The notes beneath the pieces are model-generated. The model did not search any database and had not been told where the DNA came from. It was given only the letters and a program-made list of their open reading frames with translations. Positions 9,101 through 57,785 of a stretch of 64,000 nucleotides of DNA are shown piece after piece. The position numbers and the translations under genes were made by a program. Within the stretch, counting starts at the first letter, position 1. Each line of letters opens with the position of its first letter. Origin of the DNA: Helianthus annuus (lineage: Eukaryota > Streptophyta > Magnoliopsida > Asterales > Asteraceae); the NCBI RefSeq assembly GCF_002127325.2, contig NC_035433.2, positions 88,839,350 through 88,903,349 on the forward strand, in the 5' to 3' direction.

Positions 9101-12100
9101 CATGGCGCAAAACGCCCTAGGGTGGGGCATTATTCACCCCAACGACTACGCATGGTCTAAAATATAACCCTTCTGACCTTTTATGCTACCCACCTGTCTT
9201 GCTAAATATAGTATATGATGATTATACTGCATGCTACCTGTTTTATTGTTTAATTATTTATTCATGGCTTCTGACTTTCTGTAACTTATCATTAATCAAG
9301 CGTGTCAAGGCAGTTAATAACTACTTGTTCTGTTTAGGCTGTTTTGTGGAACATGGATACGCTGCAAACCGAGAACACCCCTGAAGAACACCAATACGTA
9401 ATAACTGATGTTCGCTTTAGACCAAATTCAACTCAATTAGCAACTGCTTCCTTTGATAAGTCTGTACGGATATGGGATGCCGCTAATGTAAGCCTTGTTT
9501 TTTACCTTATTATGCGATGTACACTATTAGAGTATAATGTTTTTATAAATATTTGTTGGGTTCTGAGATGCATTACGTTTTGAATATAATCTTGCAGCCA
9601 AGCTATTGTTTGCATGCACATACGGGCCATACAGCACATGTTATGTCCTTGGATTTTCATCCAAAGAAGAATGATCTTTTCTGCTTCTGTGATAGTAACA
9701 GTGAAATTCGATATTGGAATCTCAGCCCGTTTGTCTGTACTCGCATCTCTAAGGTTGGTCTGAAATTGTATATAGCTGATTAGAACTGGTCAAATGAGTT
9801 GACTGTGTCGCTGCCTAAAAAACAAATTTTGTCCAAAAACTGGGCAATTCAATATTCATAGGATATAAAAAAAATCTTAAGAAATCAAAACATCAACCCC
9901 ACCTCAAATTATAATGTTCATCATTGCATTGATGAGTTCTTTTTCACGTTTGAATGTTTGATGAACTTGGCCGTAAGTAGTGCTGGCAATCACAATCCGT
10001 GCGGCTGTTTATGGGTAGATTTGGGTAAATTTCATCTGCCTTTTGGGTTCCTTTGGGTTAGTCAAACATACATCACGGGTCAAAACGGATATCTAACAAA
10101 ATCTCGGCAAGGAAGCACGGGTCAGAATGGGTCATAGCAGGTGACTGGACGGGTCAAAATGGGTCAAGGCAGGTGTACGACGGGTCGTCACCTTCTTCTA
10201 CCACCGGCTTCTTCTACCGCCTTCGATTCTACACCTACAGCCGATTGTGCACCAAACACCCATGGATTCAATTTTTTTTCTTGAACGAATCATCAACACA
10301 ATTAACATCTTGTTTGTCTTCTAGTTTTTTACCATCGTTATGTGAGATTGCATCTGAGTTTGAAGGATGCTTGAGTAGATAGAGAAACAAAAGGTCTGGA
10401 TGCTTGAGTAGAGAGAGGAACAAAAGGTGTGTTGACTATGGGTATTTTAAATATCTTTTTTTCATCAGTTTTTATTTAAGTATTATATATAATATGCCTC
10501 GTAAGTTGTAACCTGTGGTAGATCACTCATCACCTGCCAATGAGGTAGGTAGTGGTGGAGTGGTTGGGGAAAAATTTGGTGTTCCTTGTGACTCAGGTTC
10601 GACTCCCACTCTCCCCATTATTTTCTGCGGCATCCAGGTGAAGGGCGAATGCGGGTGGCGCCGGTTCGTCTTGGATGAGAGGCGAGGTTTTACCGATTAT
10701 TCCACTGTCGTGCCTTCGGGCGGGTGGAGGTCGGTTTTCCGCGCATCTGGGAGAGCCAAGGGGCTGGCGGCGGTCGAGTAGTCGACCTTGGCCACAACGC
10801 CCGGTGTCACGTTGGTTGGCACGTCGTTCCTTGCCGTTCAAAAAAAACAGATCACTCATCACCGTACCATGTACATATGTTGTTTTTTTTCTAAGTTGTT
10901 TAAATATTTTAAATTAGCCCCACACCCACCACACATTCATATCAATGGTCTCACAGACATTGATTAAATTTCTTTTCTTATCTTTGATAAGTTTGATTAT
11001 GGTCTCACAGACACTGATTAAATTTTTTTTCTTACCTCTGATAAGTTTGAGTATTATATTTTGGTCGTTTGAAGGAGGAAAGATGGATATACTTGTAATA
11101 CATTTCTTTTAAAATAGAAAAACCTTTTTAAACCAACCCGACCCGAAACCCGCCCTGACCCGCAACCCGTTCCGACCCGAACCCGTTTTGACCCGAACCA
11201 AAACAACCTTTTTTAATTGACCCCTTTTGACCCGAACCCGTTTTGACACATGACCCATGACCCGACCCGTTTGCCAGGTCTAGCCGTAAGAAATAGTTTG
11301 AAAGCGAACCACGTTTTTAGAAGAAAAAATTAAGCCATATAATATTATCGCTTTGCATTATATAAAACGTTTACCACCAATTAATTATTTCAAATCTAAA
11401 TTAAAAACTTGTAATTTCATCTTCATCCATTTGAGTTTTACAATGTGTGTGTGTGTACAGAGGAATAGGATGTTATAAAAAGTGATTTTCGCTAAAAGTG
11501 AACTGATGCATAAACTTTTTGAGTGGGAGAAAGAGAGCTTGATGCATGTAATGATTTACAAATTTTTTGGGAGGGTTTGCATCATTTTTAAACGTGCCGT
11601 TATCAGAACTACCAAAAATTTTGCAATGATACAACAATGCAAAAACGTTATATGCAGGTGTTCCATACTTCCATCAATGTATAAAAGAGATACATCTTAT
11701 AACATAGATGCGCATGCAACACAAACCATGGTGCATTAGTGACTTTCACACTTATCAAAAGCACCATCGTTTGTGTTGCATGCGTGTCAACGCTATAAGA
11801 TGTTGCGTCACTTTCATACATTGATGCAACACTTATATATAATGTTTTTGCATTGTTGTATCATTGCATCATTTTTGGTGGTTCCTTAATTCTGATAACC
11901 GCGCGTTTAAAATGATGCAAGCCTCCCCAAAAAGTTTGTGAATCACTACATGTGTCAACCTTTCTTCCTTCCTAACCTGTTTACCATAAGCTTCCTTCCG
12001 CTCAAAAAGTTATGCATCAATTCACTTTTTAGCGAAAATCACTTCTTATCACATCCTATTCCTTTGTACACACACCCATTGTAAAACTCAATTGGATGAA

Positions 12101-29116: not shown

Positions 29117-29790
29117 GAGCATTCATAATCCGTCCCCCAAATTCTGTGAGACGGTTTTTTATATTATGAAAAGTGATTGTAGATGGTTGAAAATGGTTTG
29201 TAAGTAGAGGAGGGAGAAAAAATATTACTGTTCATCTGTAAATTTGAGGGGACACTATTCACCCTCTATAATTTTTTATATATTTCGAAAATGATTGTGA
29301 GTGGAGGAAAGAAAAAAAAGGTAAGACCATACGTAGTCGTTGGGGTGAATAATACCCCACCCTAGGACGTTTTGCGTCATGTGGCAGCCCAGTCAGCAAT
29401 GAGGCATTATTAGGCGTTTTTACAAAAGGGGTGTAGTGGGGATGTGTGGATTGTGGGGCATTATGTTTGTAATAAAATAAAATAAAAAAAACATTTAAAA
29501 ATCTTATTGGCCAAAAAATGGAAGCTCAAATGTGATTGGCCAAGAAATTCCCCCACCAACATGATTTATAACACGCCATAACAAAAAAAAAGGTCAAACA
29601 CGGCCATGCGTAGTGGCTGGTGGGCGAGATGGGGCGTGATTGAGCACAAAAAACGTACCTTTGGGTAGCCACTACGGGTGGTCTAATGATAAAAATATAA
29701 AAAATATTATTTAATTGAAAGGGGAAGAGAAAATGTAGTTATTTTTAGTGAAATTATAGGGTAAAAAAGATGAAAGGGATGTGAATGCTC
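29117..29790. mobile_element. Harbinger MITE containing another MITE
   Basis: The ends gagcattcataatcc and gagcattcacatcc (read from the right) are inverted repeats, with TAA at 29114-29116 and 29791-29793. Subtracting the inner MITE at 29325-29683 and its TAA leaves about 312 bp. Confidence 0.75.
29325..29683 (-). mobile_element. Tourist-like (Harbinger) MITE, family copy 2, nested
   Basis: The 359 bp element has ends gaccatacgtagtc / gaccacccgtagtgg and TAA at 29322-29324 and 29684-29686. It is the inverted counterpart of the copy at 8795-9157, sharing most of its interior, but differs near its right end. It is inserted in the MITE at 29117-29790. Confidence 0.85.
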
Positions 29791-30438
29791 TAAGAGACAT
29801 GTTTTTCTAGGCTCGAACAGGGCAACTTAATTATTAGGATCAGCCTTGGATTCACATATATGACTTGCACATATATAAGCAGGGGCGTACCCACCCTAAG
29901 CCAAGGGTGGGCGGGCGCACCCTATGAAAAAAATATTTTTAGTGTTATTTTTCGTCGGAAATCCCGACCGCACCCCTTGGAATTTTTCACCCGCACCCCT
30001 TGAAAACTTTCAACCGCCCCACTTAGAAAAAAATAATTATTAACCACTTATTTAGTTAATTATTTAATCCAATCAAAGCCCAATCTACAATCAATTTTTA
30101 TTAACACAAGCCCAAACCCAACCTAAAGAAATTTGAACTAAATATAATAACCCAAACCCATCCACCCATTCCATTTCCAAATCCCGCCCCCAAAAAACTC
30201 ACAGCGACTTGACGCCACTGCTCACGACCAGGTGTTTTTTTTTACCGGAAAAACCAAAATTCCGGTTGGACCGACCCATATTACGTCAGAATTCCAATAT
30301 AGAACTAGTATGGTTTATTTATTTATTTATTTATTTTGTTTTATGCGATGATTAGAAGAAAATATAGATTTGTAAGGGTTTAATCTTCTTATATTTTTTT
30401 GATTTTTTGTTGTTCTAGACTTGTAGTTAAATGATTTT

Positions 30439-33246
30439 TGTCACACCCCAACCGATGGCGGAATCATCGGGGCGCGGCACTGAGCGAAACAGATTGTTCA
30501 GAAGTTTCCACAACAACTATCATACAATTCAGTTATATAACACGTCCCATACCGTGTCCCAAACAATAACAAGTTATCATAGAAATCAACTAAACAATAT
30601 GGGAACTGTTCCGACAACTCAGATTCTTAATTATTACAGACCGAATTTAAATATTGTTTTAAGACTTCTAGACGGCTAACTGTAGATCTTACTGACTACA
30701 GGTGCCAGTACAAGATCTACAGATAATTATGGCCCTGGAGCAGGTATGTGGACACTGTCCTAAGGTCACAGGCTCCTAGAAGCTTATTATTGCCTCGCTT
30801 CCCTAGCACGCTAGTAGCTTAAACACCTGTCACATACGTTAAAATAAAAGTCAATACATATAATGTAAAGGTGAGTACACAAGTTTGATATAGCATATAA
30901 AGTTCGAAAAGTTTACGCATAACCAAGCACGTACACAAGGGCAAACGATGCATGTAAATTATCAACATGGGACCATCGATACCAATGACTTCGAGTTGAC
31001 TGTCCGCGACAGTTCGCAATACATGATTACCACCGTAATCCATGCAAGTAATTGTCCTTAGCAACCCCCGTGTGAACGGGTGCTGAGTCCAAACTATAGT
31101 ACTACGTTGCTAAAGCAGGCAGATAGCACTCCACGTGTAAACATAATAAACAGCAATCATTTAGACAAGTAATACATGCAAGTAGGTTAGCGTTCAAATA
31201 GTTTGTGTTGTTCGTGAATTTGATAGATTACGTATGTAACACCCAAAAGTGCTGAAAGCAAAAAGGGATCGAGTATACTCACAGTGGTTGGTTGTGGATT
31301 GAGAGGAGCACTGAGAATAGGTTAGCCTGAATAGTTCGATAACAATACAATGAGTAATGCGAAAAAGTGAACAGTGGAAACTGGATCGGATAGGCCATTC
31401 GATCGGACGGCTGTTCGATCGAGTGGGCTGTTCGATTGGGTTAAAGTCTGTTCGAACGTCCCGTTCGATCGGCCGGCTGGCTCGATCGGCTGGTTCCTTC
31501 AAGTGGATTGTTTCTTCCTTTGATGAGAAGGATGTGTTTGTGTATGATGGTTTGAACTTTTGAAGTTCTTGCAGCATTACCTTTCAAGTTGGCCGATCGA
31601 ACAGCTGTTCGATCGGTTAGCCCAACCGATCGGTTATCAGCAAGGACTTGACAATATGTCACTCGACCGGGTAGCATGCTCGATCGGGTGACATTCCAAT
31701 GTTTCGAAAAGGTTAAGTGTTGAAGTATAGTATCTCATGATTCGAGCAGTAATGTTCAATCGAGTGGCGTAGTCGATCGAACAGTACCTCGTCAATACTA
31801 CACTTTTGTGAGTTGGTGGGTCTGAGTGCTAGTCGATCGGTTAGCCTAGTCGATCGGCTGGTGTTGCTCGATCGGTTGGGCTGTTCGATCGAACAGCCTA
31901 GCCGTTCGGCCAGCTCCTCGATTCGGTTAACCTATCACTTAACACTTGGTTATTCCCGTTAATTGTTGATGTTTTAGAGATATTTTGACTACGAGTTGAA
32001 CCACAAAGCTGAAGTCCCTACTTAGTCTACTGACTCGAGCAGGAATCACCCAAGCTCGGCCAGAGGCGGTTTGGAACTTAAGTTTAACGTTTAACCCGAA
32101 ATCGGTATATCTCTCGGTAGAACCCGAATCTTGCACCATGTGTTTGCTTAGAATGGTTTATAAATCGGTTCAAGCTTCGTTTTCACCGGTTTGAGTGTAA
32201 AAGAGTTGAAAGATAGATGAAAACCCATCTTCCAATCCTTTCCCACCGTGAAATGTTAAGATCTTTGGTAGATTTTAGGTTATTTATGTGGAAATCGGTT
32301 AGATCTAAGCTATTCATGGTGGAATGATGTCAAAACTTAGTGTTCTTGAAGAACACCATGATGACATCATCCAAGAACACCTAGATCTTGGTGATTTCGC
32401 GGTTGAAATCCAAGTTTTGAAAGATAGAAAGATGGAGAATCGATTAATGAACAAAAACGTACAAGGATTAGAGCGAAATACTTACCGGTTTGAGAGAAAT
32501 CTGAGAAATGGCGAGAATAGAAGGCTGGTCGGTCAGAGCTTTTCCAAAAGTGGAAAGCTTGACAAGGACAGCCCTATTTATAGGCTTCCAAAAGTGGAAA
32601 GGGTTAGCTGATCGAACAGCATCCCTGATCGAGCAGCTGTCCGATCGAACAGCCTGTTCGATCGGCTAGCCTGTTCGATCAGGTTGCCCTGTTCGATCGG
32701 CTTGCCTGGTTTTTGAGTGTTTCGCGACGATTTTGATATTTCGAGTTCGATAGTTGAGGAGTAGAGTAGGATAGAGTTTCTATTCAAATTACTTTCAGTC
32801 CCAACTACTATATCTAACATACAAGCATCCTTACACCACGATTTGGATTCGATTTCGATTGAGTTTGATTCACCTTCGATTCTTGATTGATTTTGATTGA
32901 TTCACCACACACTTTAACATAAGGTAAGCATGCACAAGTAACACGTAAGGCACACACACACGTATAAAAGCATTAAAATTATCCACACTTGAGTTCGATG
33001 ATTGGTTTGATTAGCTTGATTATTGATTGACTAGCTTTATTGCATTGTTACTTCCTATCATTCACAGTCGGTCGTTGATTCACAGTTCGATTATCGGCCG
33101 ATTAGTTTGATTATACAACACTTACTCCAAATAATATGAAAATCAGAATGAAACTAAAATAAAATTAATCTTTATTGATCTTTAATTCCAATAACAGTCA
33201 ACTCTTGACTTTGACTTTGACTTCTGGGAAAACACGGGGTGTTACA
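30439..33246 (-). repeat. 3' LTR of the Tekay-type element
   Basis: This is the left LTR on the + strand and the 3' LTR in the sense of transcription. It carries tracts of gttcgatcgg / ccgatcgaac motifs around 31380-31925 and 32595-32710, and a TATA-like ctataaatag (minus) at 32574-32583. The ORFs of 60-130 codons within it are not conserved genes. Confidence 0.95.
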
Positions 33247-33260
33247 GTCTCCCCTCCTTT
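33247..33260 (-). promoter_or_regulatory. Polypurine tract of the Tekay-type element
   Basis: On the - strand the sequence aaaggaggggagac directly precedes the 3' LTR, where plus-strand DNA synthesis is primed. The same tract appears at 34954-34967 because of the assembly duplication, and at 60255-60268 in the second element. Confidence 0.85.
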
Positions 33261-33333
33261 AGGGAATTTCGTCCCGAAATTAGGCCGAGAACCGTACATC
33301 GCCGTGTGATTTTACCAATTTGATGCTTCAGAT

Positions 33334-33904
33334 CTATCTGAATAACTGCGGGTACTTGGCCTTCATGTCACTTTCGAGTTCCCAAGTGAACTCCGCGCCT
33401 CGTTTGCCTTCCCATCGTACTTTTACAATAGGAATGCGAGAGCGTCTGAGTTGCTTGGTCTGTCGGTCCATGATTTCGACAGGCTTTTCCACGAAGTGTA
33501 GCGTCTCATTGACCTGAAGATCGTCGAGTGGTATTATTGCGTCGTGGTCGGCTACGCATTTTCGAAGGTTTGAAATATGGAAAGTCGGGTGGACATTGCT
33601 GAGTTCCTCCGGTAATTCGAGTTTGTAGGCAACTTTACCGATCCTTTCCAGAATCTTAAAAGGTCCAACAAATCGAGGCGCAAGTTTCCCTCTTTTGCCG
33701 AATCGGACTACTCCCTTCCAAGGTGATACCTTTAGGAGTACGTAAGTCGCCAACTGCAAATTCGCGGGGCTTGCGTCGTTTATCGCGTACATCTTTTGTC
33801 TGTCCGGGCCTTCACCAAATTTTCCCTATCTGGTGGATCTTGTCAGTCGTTTCTTGCAGAATCTCGGGCCCAGTCAATTGTGAATGACCGACCTCGTGCC
33901 ATAC
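33334..33904 (-). pseudogene. False duplicate of the 3' end of Gag-Pol (contig overlap)
   Basis: This repeats 35041-35613 almost exactly but with single-base length differences, such as cgtaagtcg for cgtagtcg near 33740, a lost g in tatcgcgtac near 33784, tgtccgggcc for tgtcccgggcc, and ttccctatc for ttcccttatc. The frame is therefore broken. It ends at the N run. The differences are homopolymer-type and cluster near the contig end, so this is assembly error rather than a biological pseudogene. Confidence 0.85.
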
Positions 33905-33917
33905 NNNNNNNNNNNNN
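33905..33917. other. Assembly gap of 13 N
   Basis: Thirteen N separate two copies of the same sequence: 32208-33904 and 33918-35613. The gap therefore marks an unmerged overlap, not missing sequence. A fixed 13-N spacer is what Bionano hybrid scaffolding inserts when adjacent contigs overlap. Confidence 0.95.
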
Positions 33918-34953
33918 GAAAGATAGATGAAAACCCATCTTCCAATCCTTTCCACCGTGAAATGTTAAGATTCTTTGGTAGATTTTGGTTATTTATGTGG
34001 AAATCGGTTAGATCTAAGCTATTCATGGTGGAATGATGTCAAAACTTAGTGTCTTGAAGAACACCATGATGACATCATCCAAGAACACCTAGATCTTTGG
34101 TGATTTCGCGGTTGAATCCAAGTTTTGAAAGATAGAAAGATGGAGAATCGATTAATGAACAAAACGTACAAGGATTAGAGCGAAATACTTACCGGTTTGA
34201 GAGAAATCTGAGAAATGGCGAGAATAGAAGGCTGGTCGGTCAGAGCTTTTCCAAAAGTGGAAAGCTTGACAAGGACAGCCCTATTTATAGGCTTCCAAAA
34301 GTGGAAAGGGTTAGCTGATCGAACAGCATCCCTGATCGAGCAGCTGTCCGATCGAACAGCCTGTTCGATCGGCTAGCCTGTTCGATCAGGTTGCCCTGTT
34401 CGATCGGCTTGCCTGGTTTTTGAGTGTTTCGCGACGATTTTGATATTTCGAGTTCGATAGTTGAGGAGTAGAGTAGGATAGAGTTTCTATTCAAATTACT
34501 TTCAGTCCCAACTACTATATCTAACATACAAGCATCCTTACACCACGATTTGGATTCGATTTCGATTGAGTTTGATTCACCTTCGATTCTTGATTGATTT
34601 TGATTGATTCACCACACACTTTAACATAAGGTAAGCATGCACAAGTAACACGTAAGGCACACACACACGTATAAAAGCATTAAAATTATCCACACTTGAG
34701 TTCGATGATTGGTTTGATTAGCTTGATTATTGATTGACTAGCTTTATTGCATTGTTACTTCCTATCATTCACAGTCGGTCGTTGATTCACAGTTCGATTA
34801 TCGGCCGATTAGTTTGATTATACAACACTTACTCCAAATAATATGAAAATCAGAATGAAACTAAAATAAAATTAATCTTTATTGATCTTTAATTCCAATA
34901 ACAGTCAACTCTTGACTTTGACTTTGACTTCTGGGAAAACACGGGGTGTTACA
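33918..34953 (-). repeat. Partial LTR copy created by contig overlap
   Basis: It matches 32208-33246 of the 3' LTR. Single-base losses or gains appear within the first 250 bases (for example ctttccacc for ctttcccacc, gattctttgg for gatctttgg, and aaaacgtac for aaaaacgtac). The rest is essentially identical. It should be removed when the element is reconstructed. Confidence 0.9.
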
Positions 34954-35040
34954 GTCTCCCCTCCTTTAGGGAATTTCGTCCCGAAATTAGGCCGAGAACC
35001 GTACATCGCCGTGTGATTTTACCAATTTGATGCTTCAGAT

Positions 35041-38000
35041 CTATCTGAATAACTGCGGGTACTTGGCCTTCATGTCACTTTCGAGTTCCCAAGTGAACTC
35101 CGCGCCTCGTTTGCCTTCCCATCGTACTTTTACAATAGGAATGCGAGAGCGTCTGAGTTGCTTGGTCTGTCGGTCCATGATTTCGACAGGCTTTTCCACG
35201 AAGTGTAGCGTCTCATTGACCTGAAGATCGTCGAGTGGTATTATTGCGTCGTGGTCGGCTACGCATTTTCGAAGGTTTGAAATATGGAAAGTCGGGTGGA
35301 CATTGCTGAGTTCCTCCGGTAATTCGAGTTTGTAGGCAACTTTACCGATCCTTTCCAGAATCTTAAAAGGTCCAACAAATCGAGGCGCAAGTTTCCCTCT
35401 TTTGCCGAATCGGACTACTCCCTTCCAAGGTGATACCTTTAGGAGTACGTAGTCGCCAACTGCAAATTCGCGGGGCTTGCGTCGTTTATCGGCGTACATC
35501 TTTTGTCTGTCCCGGGCCTTCACCAAATTTTCCCTTATCTGGTGGATCTTGTCAGTCGTTTCTTGCAGAATCTCGGGCCCAGTCAATTGTGAATGACCGA
35601 CCTCGTGCCATACAATAGGCGAGCGACATCTCCTACCATACAAGGCTTCGAAAGGTGCCATTTCGATGCTGGAGTGATAGCTATTATTGTACGAAAATTC
35701 GACCAACGGTAGGTGTTTGCTCCAACTACCACCAAAATCGATAACACACGCACGGAGCATGTCTTCAATAGTACGAATCGTTCTTTCAGTCTGCCCGTCG
35801 GTTTGCGGGTGGAATGCGGTACTCAAATTCAGCGTCGTACCAAGAGCTGCTTGAAAAGTTTCCCACAATCTCGATGTAAACCGAGCATCGCGATCAGAAA
35901 TGATGTCTCGAGGCGTACCATGATTCTTAATGATCTCGTCGGTGTAGATTTGGGCTAGCTTGGCCACCTTATAGTCTTCTCGTATTGGCAGAAAGTGGGC
36001 TGATTTGGTTAGACGGTCGACTATAACCCAAATACTGTCGTGACCTGATGGCGTGGTCGGAAGCTTAGTTATGAAATCCATAGCTATGCTTTCCCACTTC
36101 CATACGGGTATCGGCGGTTGTTCGAGTAAGCCTAAAGGTCTTTGGTGTTCAGCCTTGACTCTTGCACAAGTTAAACAGCTACCAACATATAGAGCAATAT
36201 CCCTTTTCATCCCAGGCCACCAGTACTTGTAGCGAAGGTCCTGGTACATTTTGTCCGCACCGGGATGAATGGAATATCGGGATTTGTGGGCTTCGTTCAT
36301 GATGATCTTTCGCAAATCTGTCCTCCTCGGAACCCAGATTCGGTCCAGATAATAGAATATCTCGTTGGCTTTGCTCACGAGCTGAGTTCCATCGTGATAG
36401 ATTCGTTCTTTCTTCAACGTACGCTCGTTAAAGCAAGCGTGTTGTGCTTCGCGGATGAGAGCTTCGAGGTTATACTGAGCCTGGATGTTTCGAACACCTA
36501 TCACGTAATTCTTTCTGCTGAGGGCGTCTGCAACTACATTCGCCTTGCCTGGGTGATAACGGATCTCACAGTCGTAATCGTTGAGAAGTTCTACCCATCG
36601 GCGTTGACGCATATTGAGTTCTTTCTGGTTAAAGATATGTTGTAGGCTCTTGTGATCGGTGAAGATCGTACACCTTGTACCATACAGGTAGTGTCGCCAA
36701 ATCTTTAAGGCAAAGACAACTGCGCCTAGCTCAAGGTCATGGGTTGTATAGTTCTTCTCGTGGATTTTGAGCTGTCGAGATGCGTAAGCTATAACCTTGT
36801 CTCGTTGCATGAGAACACAGCCAAGTCCAAGGTTTGAAGCATCACAATAGACAACGAAGTCATCACTTCCGTCCGGCAGTGTAAGAACTGGTGCATGGCA
36901 CAGCATGTGTTTGAGGGTTTGGAAAGCAGTCTCCTGCGCGGTTCCCCACACAAAAGGCTTGTCTTTATGAGTAAGGGAGGTAAGCGGTACAGCAATCTTT
37001 GAGAATCCTTCGATGAATCGCCGGTAGTAACCAGCTAATCCGAGAAAAGAGCGAACTTCTGACGGATTCTTTGGCGTAACCCATCCCTTGACTGCCTCAA
37101 TCTTTGCAGGATCAACGTGTATACCCCGACTATTCACAATATGACCCAGAAATTGAACCTCCTCCAACCAGAACTCACACTTGGAGAATTTGGCGTAGAG
37201 TTGGTTTCCCTGAAGCAACTCGAGAACCAATCGCAAATGCTGCGCATGTTCGGCCCTCGATCTGGAATAGATCAGGACATCGTCGATAAATACAATGACG
37301 AAACGGTCTAAGAACGGTTTACACACGCGATTCATCAGATCCATAAAGACCGCGGGTGCGTTGGTCAGACCAAAAGGCATGACAACAAATTCGTAGTGGC
37401 CGTATCGGGTTCGAAAAGCGGTTTTGGGTATGTCTTCCTCTTGAATCCGCAACTGATGGTAGCCTGAACGTAGATCAATCTTGGAGAAACACTGAGCACC
37501 TTGTAATTGGTCAAACAGATCATCGATTCTTGGTAAGGGGTATCGGTTCTTGATGGTCAGCTTGTTCAATTCCCGGTAATCGATGCACATTCGGAACGAC
37601 CCGTCCTTCTTTTTGACGAAAAGGACTGGTGCGCCCCATGGAGAAGTGCTCGGGCGAATGAAGCCTTTTTCAAGTAACTCTTGGAGTTGGTTTGAGAGTT
37701 CTCGCATCTCAGATGGAGCGAGTCGATACGGAGCTTTGGCCACTGGGTTGGCTCCTGGAATAAGGTCGATTCGAAAGTCGATATCACGACTTGGAGGTAA
37801 TCCAGGAAGATCATCAGGGAACACCTGAGGAAATTCTCGGACAACGGGAACATCCTTGACTTCAACTTTCCTTTTCTTGTCCGTCTCTGCTACAACAATG
37901 TTGGCCAAGAAGGCTCGATATTCCTTGCGGAGATATTTGCGAGCTTGAAGACATGACATGAGCTTGAGATCTTTTGCAGTAGTTTCACCATAAACACATA

Positions 38001-39669
38001 GAATATCACCACTAGCTAGCACAAAACGAATCATCTTATCGGAACACACAACTTCAGCACGGTTTTCACGAAGAAAGTCCATGCCTACTATGACATCGAA
38101 ACTTCCGAGCTGCATTGGAATGAGATTAATCGGGAATATATGATTGTTGAGCTCGAGAGTACAATCACGGAGCACAGAATTGACAGCAATGGTTCTTCCG
38201 GTAGCGACTTCTACTTCGAAGGGTGACGAAAGATAAGAGCGCTTACGTCTAAGAAGCTTCTCAAATTCAAATGACACAAAGCTGTTATCGGCTCCAGTAT
38301 CAAACAAACATGATGCATATATACCATTCACGAGGAACGTACCATTGACCACGTTGTTATCAGCTTGAGCCTGGCGTGCGTTGATGTTGAAAGTTCTGGC
38401 GTGAGCGGCTTGTTGTTGAGGCTGCTGCTGTTGTTGCTGGGGTTGTTGGGCTTCTTGTTTCACCACTCTGTTCGGGCACCGGTTTGCGAAGTGGTTAGGG
38501 TCACCACATACAAAGCAGGTCCGAACATTGTTTGCCGGGGCCTGTGCAGCTTGAGGAGCTTGAGGAGCTTGAGGAGCAGGTAGCAGGGCTTGGTTAACAG
38601 CGGCTTGAGCTTGCGTTTGACGAGGACCATAGCGGCAGTTCGCAGTGAAATGCCCGTAAACGTTGCAGTGGGCACAGTAATGGCAGGCCACACCCACCGG
38701 GTGATGATAAGAACATGTAGCACAGAGTGGGTGGGGGCCGGTGTACGCACGCTTAGCCGGCGGCGCATTGATCACTGGCGCAGTGCGCTGTGGTTGTTGC
38801 TGTTGTGGCGGTACTGACTGAAGAGGAGCAGCATTGGTTGCGGCGGCGCAACTCTTGTTCTTCTTTCTTCTTCTCGAGGACTTGGAGGCTTGAGCAGTAG
38901 GGTTGTCGGTTGATGCGGTAGTAACTTGATGCAACGACTTGGATGGTTTATCCCAGACACCAGCCTTAACTCGCTTGTCATTAATCTCGGCAGCGAGTAG
39001 GTAGGTTTCCTCGATTGATGCGGGTTTGGCGGCGAACACAAAATCTGCAACACAATCCGGAAGAGCACGGATGTATTTCTTGATGGTCATCTCGGGAGTC
39101 TTGACCTGGTCTGGACAGATAATGCTCAGTTGTTTGAAACGGGCGGTGAGACCAGCGTTGTCGCCCTCCTTCTGCTTGATGGTCCAGAACTCATCCTCCA
39201 ACTTTTGGCGTTCGTGGGGAGGACAGAACTCGTCCAGCATGATAGCCTTCAGTTCCTCCCACGTCAGCTCGTAGGCAGCGTCGTTCCCGCGCTTATTCCT
39301 TTCGGCTGTCCACCAGTCCAATGCCCGCGACTGGAAGACACCGGTAGCATTGAGAGTTCGAAGATGATCCGGGCATCCGCTTTGACGAAGGGTAACTTCC
39401 ACTGAGTCAAACCAGTGAAATAAGCCTGTAGGGCCCTCTTCACCGGTGAACTCCTTCGGTCCACACGCCTTAAATTGCTTGAAACTGAACGGAGCTTTGC
39501 TGGATTCAGTGAGGGTTCGGGATTCTTCCGACGACTTGCTGGTGTTTTCGTACACCTCGCTGACAGCTTTCGCTACAGACCTTGAGATGAGCTTGGCGAG
39601 ACGTCGGTCTCTCTTTTCCTGACGGGAAAGGTTTTGGCGAGTTCTTGATGATGACGACATGGTCTGCAA
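35041..39669 (-). CDS. Gag-Pol polyprotein of the Tekay-type element (intact)
   Basis: A single open frame of 1542 aa with no stop or frameshift. Gag (about 65-230) is followed by two CCHC zinc knuckles (C332-C335-H340-C345 and C385-C388-H393-C398). The aspartic protease has DTGA at 457-460. Reverse transcriptase spans about 640-840 with D732 and the FIDD box (D796, D797). RNase H has D943, E980, D1005 and D1048. Integrase has an HHCC zinc site (H1128, H1135, C1165, C1168) and catalytic D1198, D1259 and E1295. A GPF motif follows near 1433. The C-terminus (about 1490-1541) ends in a chromodomain-like W/TWE/YP pattern. That tail, which in chromoviruses guides integration to heterochromatin, points to Tekay/Del. 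All key residues are present, so the protein is probably functional. The ATG at 39669 lies about 1 kb after the primer-binding site. Confidence 0.96.
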
Positions 39670-40725
39670 TAGACATCGCCATAGGGCTCAACACAACGAA
39701 TTCGAATCTCGCACGTCTTAGTTTACTAAAGCTTAGAATCACGTCGCATCTCACGTCACGTATCACATGTAAACACATAAGCACATAATCATAGAGGCAC
39801 ATAAGCACAGAAGCAATTTGAGCACATAAGCAATTAAGCAAATAGAGCACTTAATTTCCTAAACACGTACGGAATTTTATCACAGAGGCTGTCAGAAAAC
39901 AGAAACCTATAACCACAAGTCGAGTGTCGTTCGTTTTGCATATCGGATAGCATCACATGGTATCGTCTAACTTAGTCGTATAGCGTAGCATAGCACACTG
40001 GTTTCGTTTAGATCACATCAACAGGGGTTTGAATCGAGATAGGATAGCAACAATAAGTCACGCAGATTGATAACAAATGGAGCAATCAACGAATCTTGAA
40101 ACACGTAACCAGGTAAATCATATAAAATCAACGAAGCAACACTCAAAATCGGAAAATGGATTGTCTGCGGCTACTAGACTTCGACTAACCATGGCAACTT
40201 AACTATTCACAGTTGACTTGTCGTCACTTTCGACTCTAGGGGACATGTTTCTGCCTCGATTCTTGGGCATTATGCATGCGCATTCTAGGCCATACTCGTG
40301 AGTTCAGGTCGTTGGAGTCCGTCAATTGCCTTGGCGGGATAAAATAAAGTTGGAATAACTGCCAAGGTTAGGGTTTCACCCCTAGCTCAGCAATTTCTTC
40401 CTTGTTTTAAGAAAATTTTAGAGGAAAGTTTTCATCGAATTACGGGTTTCAGCCCTAATTTGGTATAATTCTCCCCCGTTTGTTGATAGAAATTCGCACC
40501 AAAATAATCGGCAAAAATTTGTAATTTAGGCAGGAATTCGCGGGTTTCACTCCTAATCCCGTCCAAATTACGAAATTTGGCTCGGAGTTCGGATGTAATG
40601 ATAGAATAGAAGGGAACAACATAAAATAAGCACATAAACTTGGTCTCTTGGTTCCTAACTATAGTCTAGGTCTCTAAGACAGCGATCCGGACTAGATCGT
40701 GTCTAACCTAATTCCCTATAGTTAT
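39670..40725 (-). other. Untranslated leader of the Tekay-type element
   Basis: About 1.06 kb between the primer-binding site and the Gag start. On the + strand it contains repeated cgggtttcac / gggtttcagccc segments and caattaagca / gcacataagc runs. No additional conserved frame was recognised. Confidence 0.7.
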
Positions 40726-40738
40726 GGCTCTGATACCA
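40726..40738 (-). promoter_or_regulatory. Primer-binding site for initiator tRNA-Met
   Basis: On the - strand tggtatcagagcc begins 3 nt after the 5' LTR. This is the complement of the 3' end of plant initiator tRNA-Met and is standard for Ty3/gypsy chromoviruses. Confidence 0.93.
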
Positions 40739-40741
40739 ATC

Positions 40742-43549
40742 TGTCACACCCCAACCGATGGCGGAATCATCGGGGCGCGGCACTGAGCGAAACAGATTGT
40801 TCAGAAGTTTCCACAACAACTATCATACAATTCAGTTATATAACACGTCCCATACCGTGTCCCAAACAATAACAAGTTATCATAGAAATCAACTAAACAA
40901 TATGGGAACTGTTCCGACAACTCAGATTCTTAATTATTACAGACCGAATTTAAATATTGTTTTAAGACTTCTAGACGGCTAACTGTAGATCTTACTGACT
41001 ACAGGTGCCAGTACAAGATCTACAGATAATTATGGCCCTGGAGCAGGTATGTGGACACTGTCCTAAGGTCACAGGCTCCTAGAAGCTTATTATTGCCTCG
41101 CTTCCCTAGCACGCTAGTAGCTTAAACACCTGTCACATACGTTAAAATAAAAGTCAATACATATAATGTAAAGGTGAGTACACAAGTTTGATATAGCATA
41201 TAAAGTTCGAAAAGTTTACGCATAACCAAGCACGTACACAAGGGCAAACGATGCATGTAAATTATCAACATGGGACCATCGATACCAATGACTTCGAGTT
41301 GACTGTCCGCGACAGTTCGCAATACATGATTACCACCGTAATCCATGCAAGTAATTGTCCTTAGCAACCCCCGTGTGAACGGGTGCTGAGTCCAAACTAT
41401 AGTACTACGTTGCTAAAGCAGGCAGATAGCACTCCACGTGTAAACATAATAAACAGCAATCATTTAGACAAGTAATACATGCAAGTAGGTTAGCGTTCAA
41501 ATAGTTTGTGTTGTTCGTGAATTTGATAGATTACGTATGTAACACCCAAAAGTGCTGAAAGCAAAAAGGGATCGAGTATACTCACAGTGGTTGGTTGTGG
41601 ATTGAGAGGAGCACTGAGAATAGGTTAGCCTGAATAGTTCGATAACAATACAATGAGTAATGCGAAAAAGTGAACAGTGGAAACTGGATCGGATAGGCCA
41701 TTCGATCGGACGGCTGTTCGATCGAGTGGGCTGTTCGATTGGGTTAAAGTCTGTTCGAACGTCCCGTTCGATCGGCCGGCTGGCTCGATCGGCTGGTTCC
41801 TTCAAGTGGATTGTTTCTTCCTTTGATGAGAAGGATGTGTTTGTGTATGATGGTTTGAACTTTTGAAGTTCTTGCAGCATTACCTTTCAAGTTGGCCGAT
41901 CGAACAGCTGTTCGATCGGTTAGCCCAACCGATCGGTTATCAGCAAGGACTTGACAATATGTCACTCGATCGGGTAGCATGCTCGATCGGGTGACATTCC
42001 AATGTTTCGAAAAGGTTAAGTGTTGAAGTATAGTATCTCATGATTCGAGCAGTAATGTTCAATCGAGTGGCGTAGTCGATCGAACAGTACCTCGTCAATA
42101 CTACACTTTTGTGAGTTGGTGGGTCTGAGTGCTAGTCGATCGGTTAGCCTAGTCGATCAGCTGGTGTTGCTCGATCGGTTGGGCTGTTCGATCGAACAGC
42201 CTAGCCGTTCGGCCAGCTCCTCGATTCGGTTAACCTATCACTTAACACTTGGTTATTCCCGTTAATTGTTGATGTTTTAGAGATATTTTGACTACGAGTT
42301 GAACCACAAAGCTGAAGTCCCTACTTAGTCTACTGACTCGAGCAGGAATCACCCAAGCTCGGCCAGAGGCGGTTTGGAACTTAAGTTTAACATTTAACCC
42401 GAAATCGGTATATCTCTCGGTAGAACCCGAATCTTGCACCATGTGTTTGCTTAGAATGGTTTATAAATCGGTTCAAGCTTCGTTTTCACCGGTTTGAGTG
42501 TAAAAGAGTTGAAAGATAGATGAAAACCCATCTTCCAATCCTTTCCCACCGTGAAATGTTAAGATCTTTGGTAGATTTTAGGTTATTTATGTGGAAATCG
42601 GTTAGATCTAAGCTATTCATGGTGGAATGATGTCAAAACTTAGTGTTCTTGAAGAACACCATGATGACATCATCCAAGAACACCTAGATCTTGGTGATTT
42701 CGCGGTTGAAATCCAAGTTTTGAAAGATAGAAAGATGGAGAATCGATTAATGAACAAAAACGTACAAGGATTAGAGCGAAATACTTACCGGTTTGAGAGA
42801 AATCTAAGAAATGGCGAGAATAGAAGGCTGGTCGGTCAGAGCTTTTCCAAAAGTGGAAAGCTTGACAAGGACAGCCCTATTTATAGGCTTCCAAAAGTGG
42901 AAAGGGTTAGCTGATCGAACAGCATCCCTGATCGAGCAGCTGTCCGATCGAACAGCCTGTTCGATCGGCTAGCCTGTTCGATCAGGTTGCCCTGTTCGAT
43001 CGGCTTGCCTGGTTTTTGAGTGTTTCGCGACGATTTTGATATTTCGAGTTCGATAGTTGAGGAGTAGAGTAGGATAGAGTTTCTATTCAAATTACTTTCA
43101 GTCCCAACTACTATATCTAACATACAAGCATCCTTACACCACGATTTGGATTCGATTTCGATTGAGTTTGATTCACCTTCGATTCTTGATTGATTTTGAT
43201 TGATTCACCACACACTTTAACATAAGGTAAGCATGCACAAGTAACACGTAAGGCACACACACACGTATAAAAGCATTAAAATTATCCACACTTGAGTTCG
43301 ATGATTGGTTTGATTAGCTTGATTATTGATTGACTAGCTTTATTGCATTGTTACTTCCTATCATTCACAGTCGGTCGTTGATTCACAGTTCGATTATCGG
43401 CCGATTAGTTTGATTATACAACACTTACTCCAAATAATATGAAAATCAGAATGAAACTAAAATAAAATTAATCTTTATTGATCTTTAATTCCAATAACAG
43501 TCAACTCTTGACTTTGACTTTGACTTCTGGGAAAACACGGGGTGTTACA
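40742..43549 (-). repeat. 5' LTR of the Tekay-type element
   Basis: This 2808 bp copy is nearly identical to the left LTR. In the sense direction U3 occupies about 42887-43549, and R plus U5 the remaining roughly 2.1 kb if transcription starts just after the TATA-like box at 42877-42886. This gives the genomic RNA an unusually long leader. Confidence 0.95.
42877..42886 (-). promoter_or_regulatory. Putative TATA box of the Tekay 5' LTR
   Basis: The - strand reads ctataaatag, a close match to a plant TATA box, with transcription expected about 30 nt downstream (near 42845). It is the only strong TATA match noted in the LTR; no other core element was assigned. Confidence 0.55.
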
Positions 43550-43848
43550 ATTTTGTTGTTTTATTTATAGCTTTGTTTGTTTAAATGATTAGTTACAAGT
43601 AATCAACATTTAATATTAGGGCTTGAATGTTTAAAAATATAATTGAAAGTTATGAGCTATGGTTGAACATGATTGTTTATTTGATGTGTTTTTTATGATT
43701 TATAAATTTTGGTTTGATGTTCTTTTGTCTTACATGATCCGACCCGACCCGCTATGAACCGATATTTTTATACAGCTAGGGGCCTAAGTTCTTTGAAAAT
43801 ATTTTGCACCCCCAGGAAAAAATTCCTGGGTCCGCCACTGTATATAAG

Positions 43849-50380: not shown

Positions 50381-53300
50381 GTTCATTTATTCTTGATTTT
50401 ATTGGTGTTTTGTAAAGTTAGGGTTTTTTTTTATAAAAAAAGGTTTTGGAGGTTTTAGCATGAAAGGTTTTTTTATATAAATGAGTTTTATTTTTTTGAC
50501 TAAGAAGCATCAAGAAAATGATTTTTAAAAAATTAACTTTAAATGGTTTAAAAGGTTTTTGAGGTTTTAGCATGAAAGTGTTTACATAAATGAGTGTTTT
50601 TTTTTTTTTTTTTACTAAGAAGCATCAAGAAAATGATTTTAAAAATTTAAACTTTGAATGGTTTAAGAAAAAGGAAAAAACTCTTTATCAAGAAAATGGT
50701 TTTGAATAAAACATCTATCAAGATTTTTTTTTTTTTTTTTAAATATAACATCTATAAAACAAAGTACATAGACAACAAAATGTTGAATTAAATGATGGGC
50801 CAACAATCAGCAATAATATTAAAAAGAAAAATATCAAATATACTAGTTAAAAACACTTAAATTTCATATCAACTTTTTTATTAAATACAATTTTTTTTCA
50901 CTATATTCTTCTCCTTTTCCTAAAGTCATACATAGGAGAAGGGTATCTATGTCAAAATCTTAAAATAGTATATATAAACTATAATTTTTATTCGGATAAA
51001 TATGATAATATTCGAATATTTAGGGAATATATGAAAGAATCCCTTAAATGAAAATGATTAAAGAAGAAGTTGCAACCAAAATTTTTGGAGTCTTTGAAAT
51101 CTAGTTGTCTTTTAGAGCCTTTAAATTTTACCGGTATTCACTTTATCTGTACATAGAAAATGCTCTTTGAAGACACTTTCATATGTGGTACCACTTTTAA
51201 GTTTTAACCGTGAGTACCCATTATTCAAAAACAGAGGCTCAGATCCCATCAATACCCTGCTAACCAATAAAACTTGTAGTTTACGCCGGAAACCATCCAA
51301 CATTTTTCATGCCATTTCGACGCTCGAAACCAAGTCAACAACGAGCGATTAAATTTGACAATTTTTTGTCTACATAATCGTTTCGTTCATGACAGTTTTT
51401 TAAACAGCTCATCAATACCCTGCTAACCAATGAAACCAGCAGTTTACGCCGGAAACTATCCAACATTTTCCACACCATTTCGACTCTCGATCTCAAGTCA
51501 ACAACGCACGATTAATTTTAAGTTTTAACAATCGTTTGTCTACATAATCGTTTCATTTGTGACGGTTTTTAAACCAACTCATCAATACCCTGCTAACCAA
51601 TGAAACCAGCAGGAGTTTATGCCGGAAACCATCCAACATTTTCCATACCATTTCGACTCTAGATCTCAAGTCAACAACGCCAACGCGCGACTAAATTTAA
51701 CAATCCTTTAGTTACATAACGGTTTCATAAGGCGGATCTAGAAATTCGTTACAGGGGCAACGTTTAAAAAAAAGGTAACGAAATTAAAAAAAAAACGTCA
51801 ATTTTTTCCAAAATTTACACTAATACCAGAGCGTCAAAGGGTAGCAGGGGCTACCCCTATTGTAAAGCTAGGTCCGCCCATGGTTTCATTCATGACAGTT
51901 TTTTTTTAAACATGAACTGGTGATAACATTTGACTAAAGATTCAAACAAACTGTTGAACAAGCATAGTAGCTGAATAGGAAAAATAAGTGTCGGCAGACA
52001 TTAAAAACATTTCCGTATTGTCGGTAGTTTGAAATAATTGGTATGAAAAGGCCGAAAACGACTTCCTTTAAGAGGCCAGGCCTTTTTCTAATTTTGTTTT
52101 GTATAGATGATGATAAGATGTTACATTGCATGAAATAATAACTGGTGTTACTCACTTATCATCTGCCCCACATAATGCCTCTCATTTAATATCAACTGTT
52201 TTCTCTTTCCATATCTGGACTACTTCTTGTTGCCTGCATGTAAGAAATTAAAACTTGTCTTTTTTAAGATACATTGTTGTTATTCGGGTCGTGTTTGCGT
52301 TTTGGTTCGCCAGACTGAACCGCTAACTATGGCCTTGTGGTTTAGTGGCATTGGTGATTAGGTGTAAAAAGTTGATGTTAAAAATAAACTACGGTTTTAG
52401 GAAATGACAAACCAAACCGGTCAGGTGTAGTGGTTTGAGCAAGTTTTTTTTAAGTTATTAGTATTTGTTGAAGTTTTAAAATAATAAAGACGGTTTATGA
52501 AGATAGCACATATTCAAGAGAGTAAACTGCCAAAATGGTCACTGATGTTTGGTCACTTTTGCCACTTTAATCCAAAACTCAAACCTTTTGAATCTGGGTT
52601 TATGTGGTTTTCAATTCTGTTGCCATTTTCATTTAAAAACAAAATCTGGTCAGATTTTTCAGTTAACATCCAGTTTTTTTTTTTTTTTTTTTTTGTCTTT
52701 TTCTCCCTTTTAATGAAGGGCAAAATGGTTAAATTTTCTTAATTTGTTATAAGAAAACGTTAAAAGACCATTTTGCCCTTTATTAAAAGGGAGGAAAAAG
52801 ACAAAAAAGCTGGATGTTAACTGAAAAATCTGACAAGATTTTGATTTTGGATGAAAATGGCAACAAGATTGAAACCACAGGGACCCAGATTCAAAAGGTT
52901 TGAGTTTTGGACTAAAGTGGCAAAGGTGACCAAACCTCAAGGACCATTTTGGCAGTTTACTCTATTCAAGATATGAAAACAATAAACAAACTAATAAAGG
53001 TTACACGGCCGGTTAGATTTTGCACGACATGTTCCAAGTTCCAAACTGTCGGGAGGACCGTTAAACAGTAAAAACCAAACCATACGCATTTCAAACCGGT
53101 TGAACCGGCCGATTTGGTTTGCGTAGTTCGGTTGGTTTCGACGGTTTATGAACACCCCTAGTTGTGATCCTTCTTTCTGGTTTGACTTTGTTGGTCAAAA
53201 TAGCTAAATATGAAATAAAAGCTAAGCAAGGGTAGTTTTGTAATTTTACATACTTGCTTCTCACAATCTGATTATGTATTGCAACAGGAGCACTCGAGAA

Positions 53301-54914: not shown

Positions 54915-56831
54915 GAGTAAACTGCAATTTTACACTCTGTGGTTAGGGGTGATTGGCACCCTTACCCCCCCTAAGGAAATAATTGCAATTTTACCCCCCA
55001 TTGTTTGCTGTTATGTTGCAACCTTACCTCCCGCCTCAAATTTGTTGACTAATCTGTTGACTATAACTTAAAATGACTATAATGCCCTTTCATATTACCC
55101 CCTGTGTTTTTGTGCACTCTGTGATATTACCCCCTGCCACCACTGCCACCGCCATTCACCACCACAACCACCACTGCCACCTCCAGCCATCACCACAACT
55201 TAATATCCCTTTCATATATAACACCACCACTACTTCCGTTACCGGAAACCTGCAACTCCGGTCATCTTCTCCAACGACTGCCACCACTGCCACCTCCAGC
55301 CACCACCACAACCACACTGCCACCACTTTTATACTTTGTAATCTAAAAGTATAATGATGTTACCTTTATTTGTTTTCTCATAATTGTGAAACATTATCTT
55401 CCAAATCATATTCAGTTAGCTTTGTGAATTTTTGAAAGAGGATGTATCAGCCACTTGCTTGTATAGGGCTGTAAACGAGCCGAGCTAGACCTAGCTCGAG
55501 CTCGGCTCGAACTCGATTCGAGCTGGCTCGGCTCGAGCTCGAATTTCAAATCGAGCTGACATTTGAGGCTCGAGCTCGACTCGATTAGAATTCGAGCTAG
55601 CTCGGCTCGGCTCGATCCAGCTCGAACTAACAAAAAATCGCAAAATTTACAACTTAAAAATGAATTTCTTCATAGACTTAGGGCTATAATTGTCATTTAA
55701 TTTAACCATATGGCTAAATATGCAAGTATAAATAGTTAATTCACTTTGTACATTGTCTTTACCTTCTTTTATAGGGGAAATACTCCTTTAGTTTTTGTTT
55801 TCTAATCGATGTGGGACAAAAAAAATGAAAGATATAAACCTTATCGAGCCAGCTCACGAGCTCTCGAGCCGAGCCAGACCAAGCTCGAGCTCGGCTCGTT
55901 TACAAACCGAGCCGAGCCGAGCTGGCTTGTTAACAACCGAGCCAATTTCGAGCCGAGCTTTCTTCGAGCTTTTTTCGAGCGAGTTTCGAGCAAGCTGCGA
56001 GCCACGAGTTTTTTGAACACCCCTATGCTTGTATTTGTCACAAGCTGTATGCATGTTATAGTGCTGACTTAACATCCCCTTCCCCCTTGGGAGATGTCTG
56101 TGTTCTCTACTTCTCTGTACCCTATAGGTCATTTAATTCTAGTTCTACACAATGAAAGTTTTATAGTGTACTAGCTCGAATACTTTCATCCCCAAATACT
56201 AAAAGAAGAACACCTGGGTTTGCATAGTATAACATTACAAATGTTAAATAAGCTAATAAAGTTTTTTTTGTTGAATAGTCAATTTTGCAAAATTATTACT
56301 ACTATAAAAATGAGCTATAGTGTGTCAGTTATGAAATAATAAAAACTGGTATTCGATCTGAGACGGGCAGGGAAGGCAAATAGCTCATTTGGTGTGGGGG
56401 CGTTTTGTTTATTGGGGTTGAAAAGTGGTATTCTATTTTCAGCCCATTAAGCATTTTGCTCTGTTCTTTAGTTGTATAGGACTATAGATAATGCATTTGT
56501 CATATAACATGGTTGTGCGGACCTTTACCGAAGTTCTTTCGATCTGCAGGAATTGTAGCTGATCCAAATTCTTTTGATCCAAGTAAATGAATGCGAACAG
56601 GGGGAGACTATACAAACACTGGTTTCTCAAGTCCATCTCCTTTTCATCCCCCACCTGCCCCTGTTTGGGGTCCACATGGGTTAGTTCATGCTGCCCCCAA
56701 GCTGATTTTGTACTTGGCTGTGTGGTTGTGGTGGTGGTAGTGTGGTTGTGGTGGTGGCTGGAGGTGACAGTGGTGGCAGTCGTTGGAGAAGATGACCGGA
56801 GTTGCAGGTTTCCGGTGACGGAAGTAGTGGT
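54915..56831. mobile_element. Long inverted-repeat (MULE-like) element, broken by hAT and Tekay insertions
   Basis: The left end is gagtaaactgcaattttac, the same opening as the MULE hairpin at 52520. About 110 bp of the left arm (55222-55330, with ccggaaacctgcaactccgg) reappears as its reverse complement at about 56711-56830 with a few mismatches. This identifies 56711-56831 as the start of the right arm. The remaining right arm should lie past the retrotransposon insertion at 56832, beyond the window. A hAT element occupies 55464-56025. Boundaries on the right are inferred. Confidence 0.6.
55464..56025. mobile_element. hAT-like MITE rich in CGAGCT motifs
   Basis: The 562 bp element has ends tagggctgtaaacgag and, from the right, taggggtgttcaaaaaac. 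A perfect 8 bp duplication, tgcttgta, lies at 55456-55463 and 56026-56033. The sub-terminal regions are arrays of cgagctcgg/ccgagccga motifs that can pair with one another. It is inserted in the larger inverted-repeat element at 54915. Confidence 0.88.
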
Positions 56832-57785
56832 TGTCACACCCCAACCGATGGCGTAATCATCGGGGCGCGGCACTGAGCGAAACAGATTGACCAGAAGTTT
56901 CCACAACAACTATTATTACAAATTCAGTTTAATGATACGTCCCATACCGTATCCCAAATAAATAAACAAGTTATCATAGAAGCAACTAGGCAAATAAATT
57001 CCGTTCCGACAACTCAGATTTAATTATTACAAACCAATTGAATAAAAGTATTGCTTGAAGTCATTAAGACTTATCCGGACAAGATCTACAGATAGCTAAT
57101 GCCATAGACCCCGGGTCGGACAACTCCAACGGCTCCATGACAATTGTTTGTTTGCTTCTAGGGACCCCTAGGTAGACCACGACCTACATCTATTCGTTGG
57201 CCTCTAGAGCTTTATTCTAGCCTCGCTTCCCTAGCAGATAAGCTTCCTAATTACCTGTCACATACGTTAGAATATTGTCAATACATAAAATGTAAAGGTG
57301 AGCACACAAGTTTAGTAATAGCATATAGAGTTCGAATAGTTTACGCATAACCAGGCACGTACGCAGAGGAAAACGATGCATGTTAATTATCGACATGGGA
57401 CCATCGATACCAACGACTGCGGCTTGACCGTCCGAGACGGTTCGCAATACATGATTACCACCGTAATCCATGCAAGTATTTGTCCTTAACAACCCCCGTG
57501 TGAACGGGTGCTGAGTCCAAACAATAGTACTATGTTGCTAAGGCAGGTAGATAGCATTCCACGTGTAAACATAATAAACAACATTCATTTAGTCAAGTAG
57601 CACATGCAAATGGTCAGCGTTCAAATAGTTTGTGTTTGATTGTGATTTTATAGGTAACGTATGTAACACCCAAAAGTGCTAAAAGCAAAAAGGGATCGAG
57701 TATACTCACAGTGATTGATTGTGGATTGAAGGGAGCGCTGAGAGTAAGATTAGCCTGAATAGTTCGATAGCATAACGATAAGTAA
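56832..57785 (-). repeat. Partial Tekay-type LTR, split by a second element
   Basis: It begins tgtcacaccccaaccgatgg and follows the first roughly 915 bp of the LTR at 30439 with many substitutions and small indels. The similarity stops at 57785, where a new LTR start (tgtcacacc) follows at once. The rest of this LTR is expected beyond the right edge. The five bases before it are gtggt, its likely target site in the right arm of the element at 54915. Confidence 0.8.

What the first reader, a model, noticed from the sequence alone, without database searches (positions are those of the whole stretch)
32208..35613. A 13-N gap hides a 1.7 kb false tandem duplication
The sequence left of the gap (32208-33904) and right of it (33918-35613) is the same stretch of LTR end, polypurine tract and Gag-Pol 3' end. 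Differences are single-base length changes concentrated close to the contig ends, typical of long-read consensus error. A 13-N spacer is the known mark of Bionano hybrid scaffolds with overlapping contigs. Annotation taken at face value would report a third LTR piece and a broken second Pol.
Basis: partly seen in the sequence, partly recalled or inferred. Interest (0 to 1): 0.75.

Follow-up and report, generated by a model that had tools for sequence, protein, structure and literature searches.

The report
False duplication at an assembly gap
Two overlapping assembly contigs inside one plant retrotransposon were most likely laid end to end with 13 placeholder letters between them, so 1.7 kb is shown twice; this is an ordinary, known kind of assembly error and not a biological duplication.

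Summary
Confirmed, and ordinary. The window's only N run is 13 bases (33905-33917). The 1,697 bases left of it and the 1,696 right of it align end to end with no substitutions and 11 single-base indels: seven within about 243 bases of the right contig's start, four within about 161 of the left contig's end, none in the 1.29 kb between. Related copies from the same genome, where decided, agree with the left copy at the first seven sites and with the right copy at the last four, so each error sits in the copy near its own contig end. The place is one Ty3/gypsy element (LTRs 30439-33246 and 40742-43549, 4 differences in 2,808; ATTTT beside both outer ends). Two papers state that Bionano hybrid scaffolding writes 13 N between overlapping contigs. 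One rival stays open: a real tandem array sharing LTRs, with a unit hidden in the gap. Pairs 8.6 kb apart occur twice on another chromosome, also without any difference over 1.7 kb, so lack of divergence does not exclude it. The 13-N convention speaks against it: that array should leave a sized gap of roughly 6.9 kb. Raw reads or the optical map would settle it.

The parts
33905..33917 (.). 13-N spacer between two contigs
   Evidence: Only N run in the window; 13 N is described as the Bionano mark for overlapping contigs
32208..33904 (-). End of left contig: first showing of the overlap (LTR part 32208-33246, purine-rich tract, 3' end of gag-pol); four private single-base errors in its last about 161 bases
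33918..35613 (-). Start of right contig: second showing of the same stretch (LTR part 33918-34953, then internal part); seven private single-base errors in its first about 243 bases
30439..33246 (-). Complete 3' LTR, on the left contig (2,808 bases)
   Evidence: 99.858% to the other LTR, 4 substitutions, no gaps
40742..43549 (-). Complete 5' LTR, on the right contig (2,808 bases)
30434..30438 (.). Target-site duplication ATTTT, left
43550..43554 (.). Target-site duplication ATTTT, right
35041..39687 (-). Gag-pol open frame, 1,548 aa stop to stop, unbroken on the right contig
   Evidence: Pfam gag, protease, RT, RNase H and integrase zinc-binding models above cut-off, integrase core below it
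33334..33825 (-). Fragment of the same Pol 3' end on the left contig, frame disturbed near the contig end
40726..40738 (-). Primer-binding-site-like stretch next to the 5' LTR (initiator tRNA-Met type, motif recalled)
   Evidence: Read

Best explanation
One LTR retrotransposon was split between two long-read contigs whose ends overlap by about 1.7 kb. The assembler did not merge them, probably because thin, poorly corrected read ends left single-base indels (inferred). An optical-map scaffolder then placed both on one map and, finding a negative gap, set them end to end with 13 N. The chromosome sequence therefore carries about 1,709 surplus letters, a false third LTR piece and a false broken Pol piece. 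Shown: the dovetail, the error pattern, the outer LTR pair with matching flanks. Inferred: the scaffolding step and that nothing is hidden in the gap.
For: No substitutions in 1,702 columns, while the 37 full-length related copies fetched differ from the left copy by 21 to 57 substitutions. All 11 indels are private to the copy near its own contig end: at the 7 sites by the right contig's start 26 to 37 of 38 copies agree with the left copy and none with the right one (the rest undecided or too distant); at the 4 sites by the left contig's end 38 of 38 agree with the right copy. The 5' LTR as third witness also matches the left copy at 7 of 7. Outer LTRs pair with each other and have the same 5-base flanks. 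Among the 41 long places found in the genome no other two lie 1.7 kb apart (which scored only 40 of 6,911 candidates). 13-N convention: passages.
Against: No reads, coverage or optical map seen. That this assembly was scaffolded with Bionano maps was not seen in the rows listed by the searches (20 of 48 papers; 7 of 7; 12 of 637). PMC10234399 itself says that 13-N gaps may stem from heterozygosity, highly repetitive sequence, paralogous regions or assembly errors. End-localised errors are expected at any contig end and do not by themselves tell an overlap from a gap inside an array. Two 8.6-kb spaced pairs elsewhere in this assembly also show 0 differences over 1.7 kb.
Confidence: 0.92

Rival explanations
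1. A real tandem array LTR-internal-LTR-internal-LTR, made by recombination between LTRs, whose identical units could not be assembled; the gap hides about 6.9 kb or more.
For: Pairs of related copies about 8.6 kb apart exist twice on contig C13, with 0 differences in 1,700 and 1,701 columns. Tandem elements with mutual LTRs are reported in sunflower, one pair being Tekay (PMC11728184, passages). Outer target-site duplication and LTR similarity fit an array too.
Against: By the convention quoted in PMC10234399 a gap of that size should be a sized N run, not 13 N. The CTTAAG site in each LTR (32077, 42380) would make an extra unit plain on a map made with that label; which label was used is not known.
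Confidence: 0.05
2. A real 1.7-kb tandem duplication within the element.
For: The printed sequence, taken at face value.
Against: Copy borders coincide with the contig ends and not with any element border; among the 41 long places (40 of 6,911 candidates scored) no other two lie 1.7 kb apart; all 11 differences are end-localised.
Confidence: 0.02
3. Two haplotypes (heterotype false duplication): the contigs come from the two parental copies.
For: Heterotype duplication is the other class of false duplication described in PMC8081667 (passages).
Against: No substitutions in 1,702 columns; all differences are indels near contig ends. A homozygous region would look like this, but then the copies are the same sequence anyway.
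Confidence: 0.01

Closest known systems
Homotype false duplication at contig boundaries (Vertebrate Genomes Project, PMC8081667)
   Same: Same sequence twice, head to tail, with a gap between; overlapping contig ends dovetail; differences look like sequencing error
   Different: Plant genome, inside a retrotransposon; 1.7 kb, where that paper says about the length of a read; read depth not seen
13-N gap of Bionano hybrid scaffolds (PMC10234399, PMC7902669)
   Same: Exactly 13 N between contigs that share their end sequence
   Different: Use of Bionano maps for this very assembly not confirmed
Ty3/gypsy element, probably a chromovirus of Tekay type (lineage is my guess)
   Same: LTR-gag-pol-LTR order, 5-base target-site duplication; a Chromo model match below its cut-off in the left fragment
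   Different: No extra 5' open frame of about 400 aa such as PMC11728184 reports for sunflower Tekay group 2: the longest frame touching the stretch before gag is 114 aa

Membership tests
Homotype false duplication | Duplicates lie at contig boundaries with a gap between | tested here: met
   Both copies reach the 13-N gap and the alignment runs to both contig ends
Homotype false duplication | No haplotype variants; differences are sequencing errors | tested here: met
   0 substitutions, 11 indels, each private to the copy near its contig end; that they are read errors is inferred, and haplotype k-mers could not be checked
Homotype false duplication | Abnormally low read depth or surplus k-mer copy number | not testable with these tools
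   No reads available
Bionano 13-N overlap join | Gap of exactly 13 N between contigs with shared ends | tested here: met
   against text
Bionano 13-N overlap join | Assembly scaffolded with Bionano Solve | tested here: inconclusive
   Nothing seen in the rows listed; organism and assembly are themselves inferred
Tandem LTR-element array with shared LTRs | A further complete internal region and LTR between the outer LTRs | tested here: inconclusive
   Not present in the printed sequence; a 13-N gap argues against it, but what a gap hides cannot be read
Ty3/gypsy LTR retrotransposon | LTR pair, target-site duplication, gag, PR-RT-RH-INT order | tested here: met
   integrase zinc-binding model above cut-off, integrase core model below it
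Chromovirus / Tekay | Chromodomain at the end of Pol; lineage by tree | tested here: inconclusive
   Chromo 17.9 bits against a cut-off of 25.1 in the left fragment, not listed for the right contig's last piece; no tree was made

The most novel reading that the evidence does not exclude
The gap sits in a genuine, very young tandem array of this element with LTRs shared between units, of which at least one whole unit is missing from the assembly; the 13 N would then come from some other scaffolding step.
Probability: 0.05. Interest if true: 0.25.

Novelty: not a real feature. Interest (0 to 1): 0.08.

Why it matters
It warns users of this assembly: at a 13-N gap the flanking letters may be counted twice, and transposon or gene annotation across it will show false fragments and false tandem copies. 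For this place the cost is about 1.7 kb and one spurious LTR piece. There is no new biology in it.

Tried and rejected
Identity of the two copies as proof of error: rejected as sufficient, since two 8.6-kb spaced pairs on C13 also show 0 differences over 1,700 and 1,701 columns. The one LTR site in the overlap where the outer LTRs differ: the right copy has the left LTR's letter, but all 23 exact-context matches in the 38 fetched relatives have that letter too, so it only speaks against descent from the 5' LTR as it now stands. How this assembly was scaffolded: the listed rows of three searches showed nothing; in PMC6288771 (passages) the one optical-map passage only recommends such maps, and in PMC12844716 (passages) Bionano does not occur.

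Full report
Observation. The window has a single N run, 33905-33917, 13 bases. The 1,697 bases before it (32208-33904) and the 1,696 after it (33918-35613) align from end to end over 1,702 columns with 1,691 identities, no substitution and 11 single-base indels. Seven indels lie 34-243 bases from the first base of the right contig and four lie 78-161 bases from the last base of the left contig; about 1.29 kb between them is identical.

Anatomy. The gap lies in one LTR retrotransposon read on the minus strand. Its LTRs are 30439-33246 (3') and 40742-43549 (5'), 2,808 bases each with four substitutions, all transitions, and no indel. On the plus strand they start TGTCACACCCC and end GGGGTGTTACA, and ATTTT stands directly outside the outer ends (30434-30438, 43550-43554). 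A primer-binding-site-like stretch of the initiator tRNA-Met type (motif recalled) lies by the 5' LTR at 40726-40738, and a purine-rich tract by the 3' LTR. The right contig holds an open gag-pol frame of 1,548 aa, stop to stop, 35041-39687. Searched in three pieces it matches Pfam gag, protease, reverse transcriptase, RNase H and integrase zinc-binding models above their cut-offs and the integrase core model below it; the left contig's fragment matches the Tf2-1 SH3 model and, below its cut-off, the Chromo model, which was not listed for the right contig's last piece. This makes it a Ty3/gypsy element; chromovirus of Tekay type is my guess. The overlap covers the 1,039 bases of the 3' LTR that adjoin the internal region, and 658 bases of internal sequence (left-copy lengths).

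Genome. The window is C1:88839350-88903349 of a genome of 3,010,006,569 bases in 334 contigs. Thirteen contigs with numbers up to C17 appear among the matches, 149.5 to 206.7 Mb long. Size and chromosome-length contigs fit cultivated sunflower, perhaps HanXRQr2.0; this is inferred, and no name was shown. A search with the right copy scored 40 of 6,911 candidates and gave 41 long places, two of which are the pair in question; no other two lie 1.7 kb apart, but two pairs on C13 lie about 8.6 kb apart.

Which copy is wrong where. I took 38 of the 39 other long places and asked at each of the 11 indels which copy each relative resembles. At the seven sites near the right contig's start, 37, 37, 37, 37, 37, 36 and 26 of 38 agree with the left copy and none with the right; the rest were undecided (11, at the seventh site) or too distant (one or two per site). 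At the four sites near the left contig's end, 38 of 38 agree with the right copy. Some neighbouring sites share context, so they are not wholly independent. The 5' LTR in the window agrees with the left copy at all seven sites that it covers. So the indels are private, each next to its own contig end, as consensus errors would be. The 37 full-length relatives differ from the left copy by 21 to 57 substitutions, against none between the two copies (the 38th, L046, is a partial copy that aligned poorly).

Meaning of 13 N. PMC10234399 (passages) says that Bionano Solve writes sized gaps where distance is known, 100 N where it is not, and 13 N where contigs aligned to the same map overlap at the ends, regardless of the size of the overlap; it names heterozygosity, highly repetitive sequence, paralogous regions and assembly errors as possible causes. 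PMC7902669 (passages) says that 13-N gaps are written between contigs that share sequence at their extremes, and counts 4,734 overlaps in a sweet corn assembly, of which 4,316 could be merged. PMC8081667 (passages) names the outcome: homotype false duplication at contig boundaries, tandem sequence with a gap between, caused by sequencing error; PMC9516828 (passages) gives gaps between duplicates and very low read depth as marks.

The rival that deserves care. Arrays in which successive elements share LTRs are reported in sunflower (PMC11728184, passages). The two C13 pairs here show 0 differences over 1,700 and 1,701 columns, so absence of divergence cannot exclude an array, and end-localised errors cannot either, as any contig end may have them. 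What speaks against it is the size of the gap. The left contig runs 1,827 bases past its CTTAAG site at 32077 and the right contig begins 8,462 bases before its own at 42380: one element needs about 8,594 between them, which means an overlap of about 1.7 kb and hence 13 N; one more unit would need about 17.2 kb and hence a gap of about 6.9 kb. This is arithmetic on the sequence; which label was used is not known. I put the overlap at 0.92 and the array at 0.05.

Verdict. The finding is right and the cause ordinary: most likely an assembly artefact of a known kind. Interest is low.

Noticed in passing
L047, L048 (C13:131308473-131328000); L018/L019 and L030/L031: Two places on C13 where related elements repeat at about 8.6-kb spacing with 0 differences in 1.7 kb. 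In the first, where the fetched stretch has no N, one unit is cut short: internal sequence stops after about 1.8 kb and is followed within about 20 bases by another LTR piece. True array or gap-free assembly duplicate is undecided.
   Followed up: partly
56831-57787: Two pieces 86-87% identical to the plus-strand start of the LTR: an older, partial relative.
   Followed up: no
52507-52975: Inverted self-match of about 0.46 kb at 82% identity, a near-palindrome.
   Followed up: no
8890-9158 and 29324-29586: Inverted pair of about 265 bases, 92% identical, perhaps a small dispersed repeat.
   Followed up: no
2059-2502 and 51247-51728: Short overlapping direct repeats at 81% and 83% identity.
   Followed up: no
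30439-33246 and 40742-43549: All four differences between the LTRs are transitions with C or G in the 3' LTR and T or A in the 5' LTR, in CG or CHG context as read by eye, as deamination of methylated cytosine would leave; few differences suggest a young insertion.
   Followed up: partly
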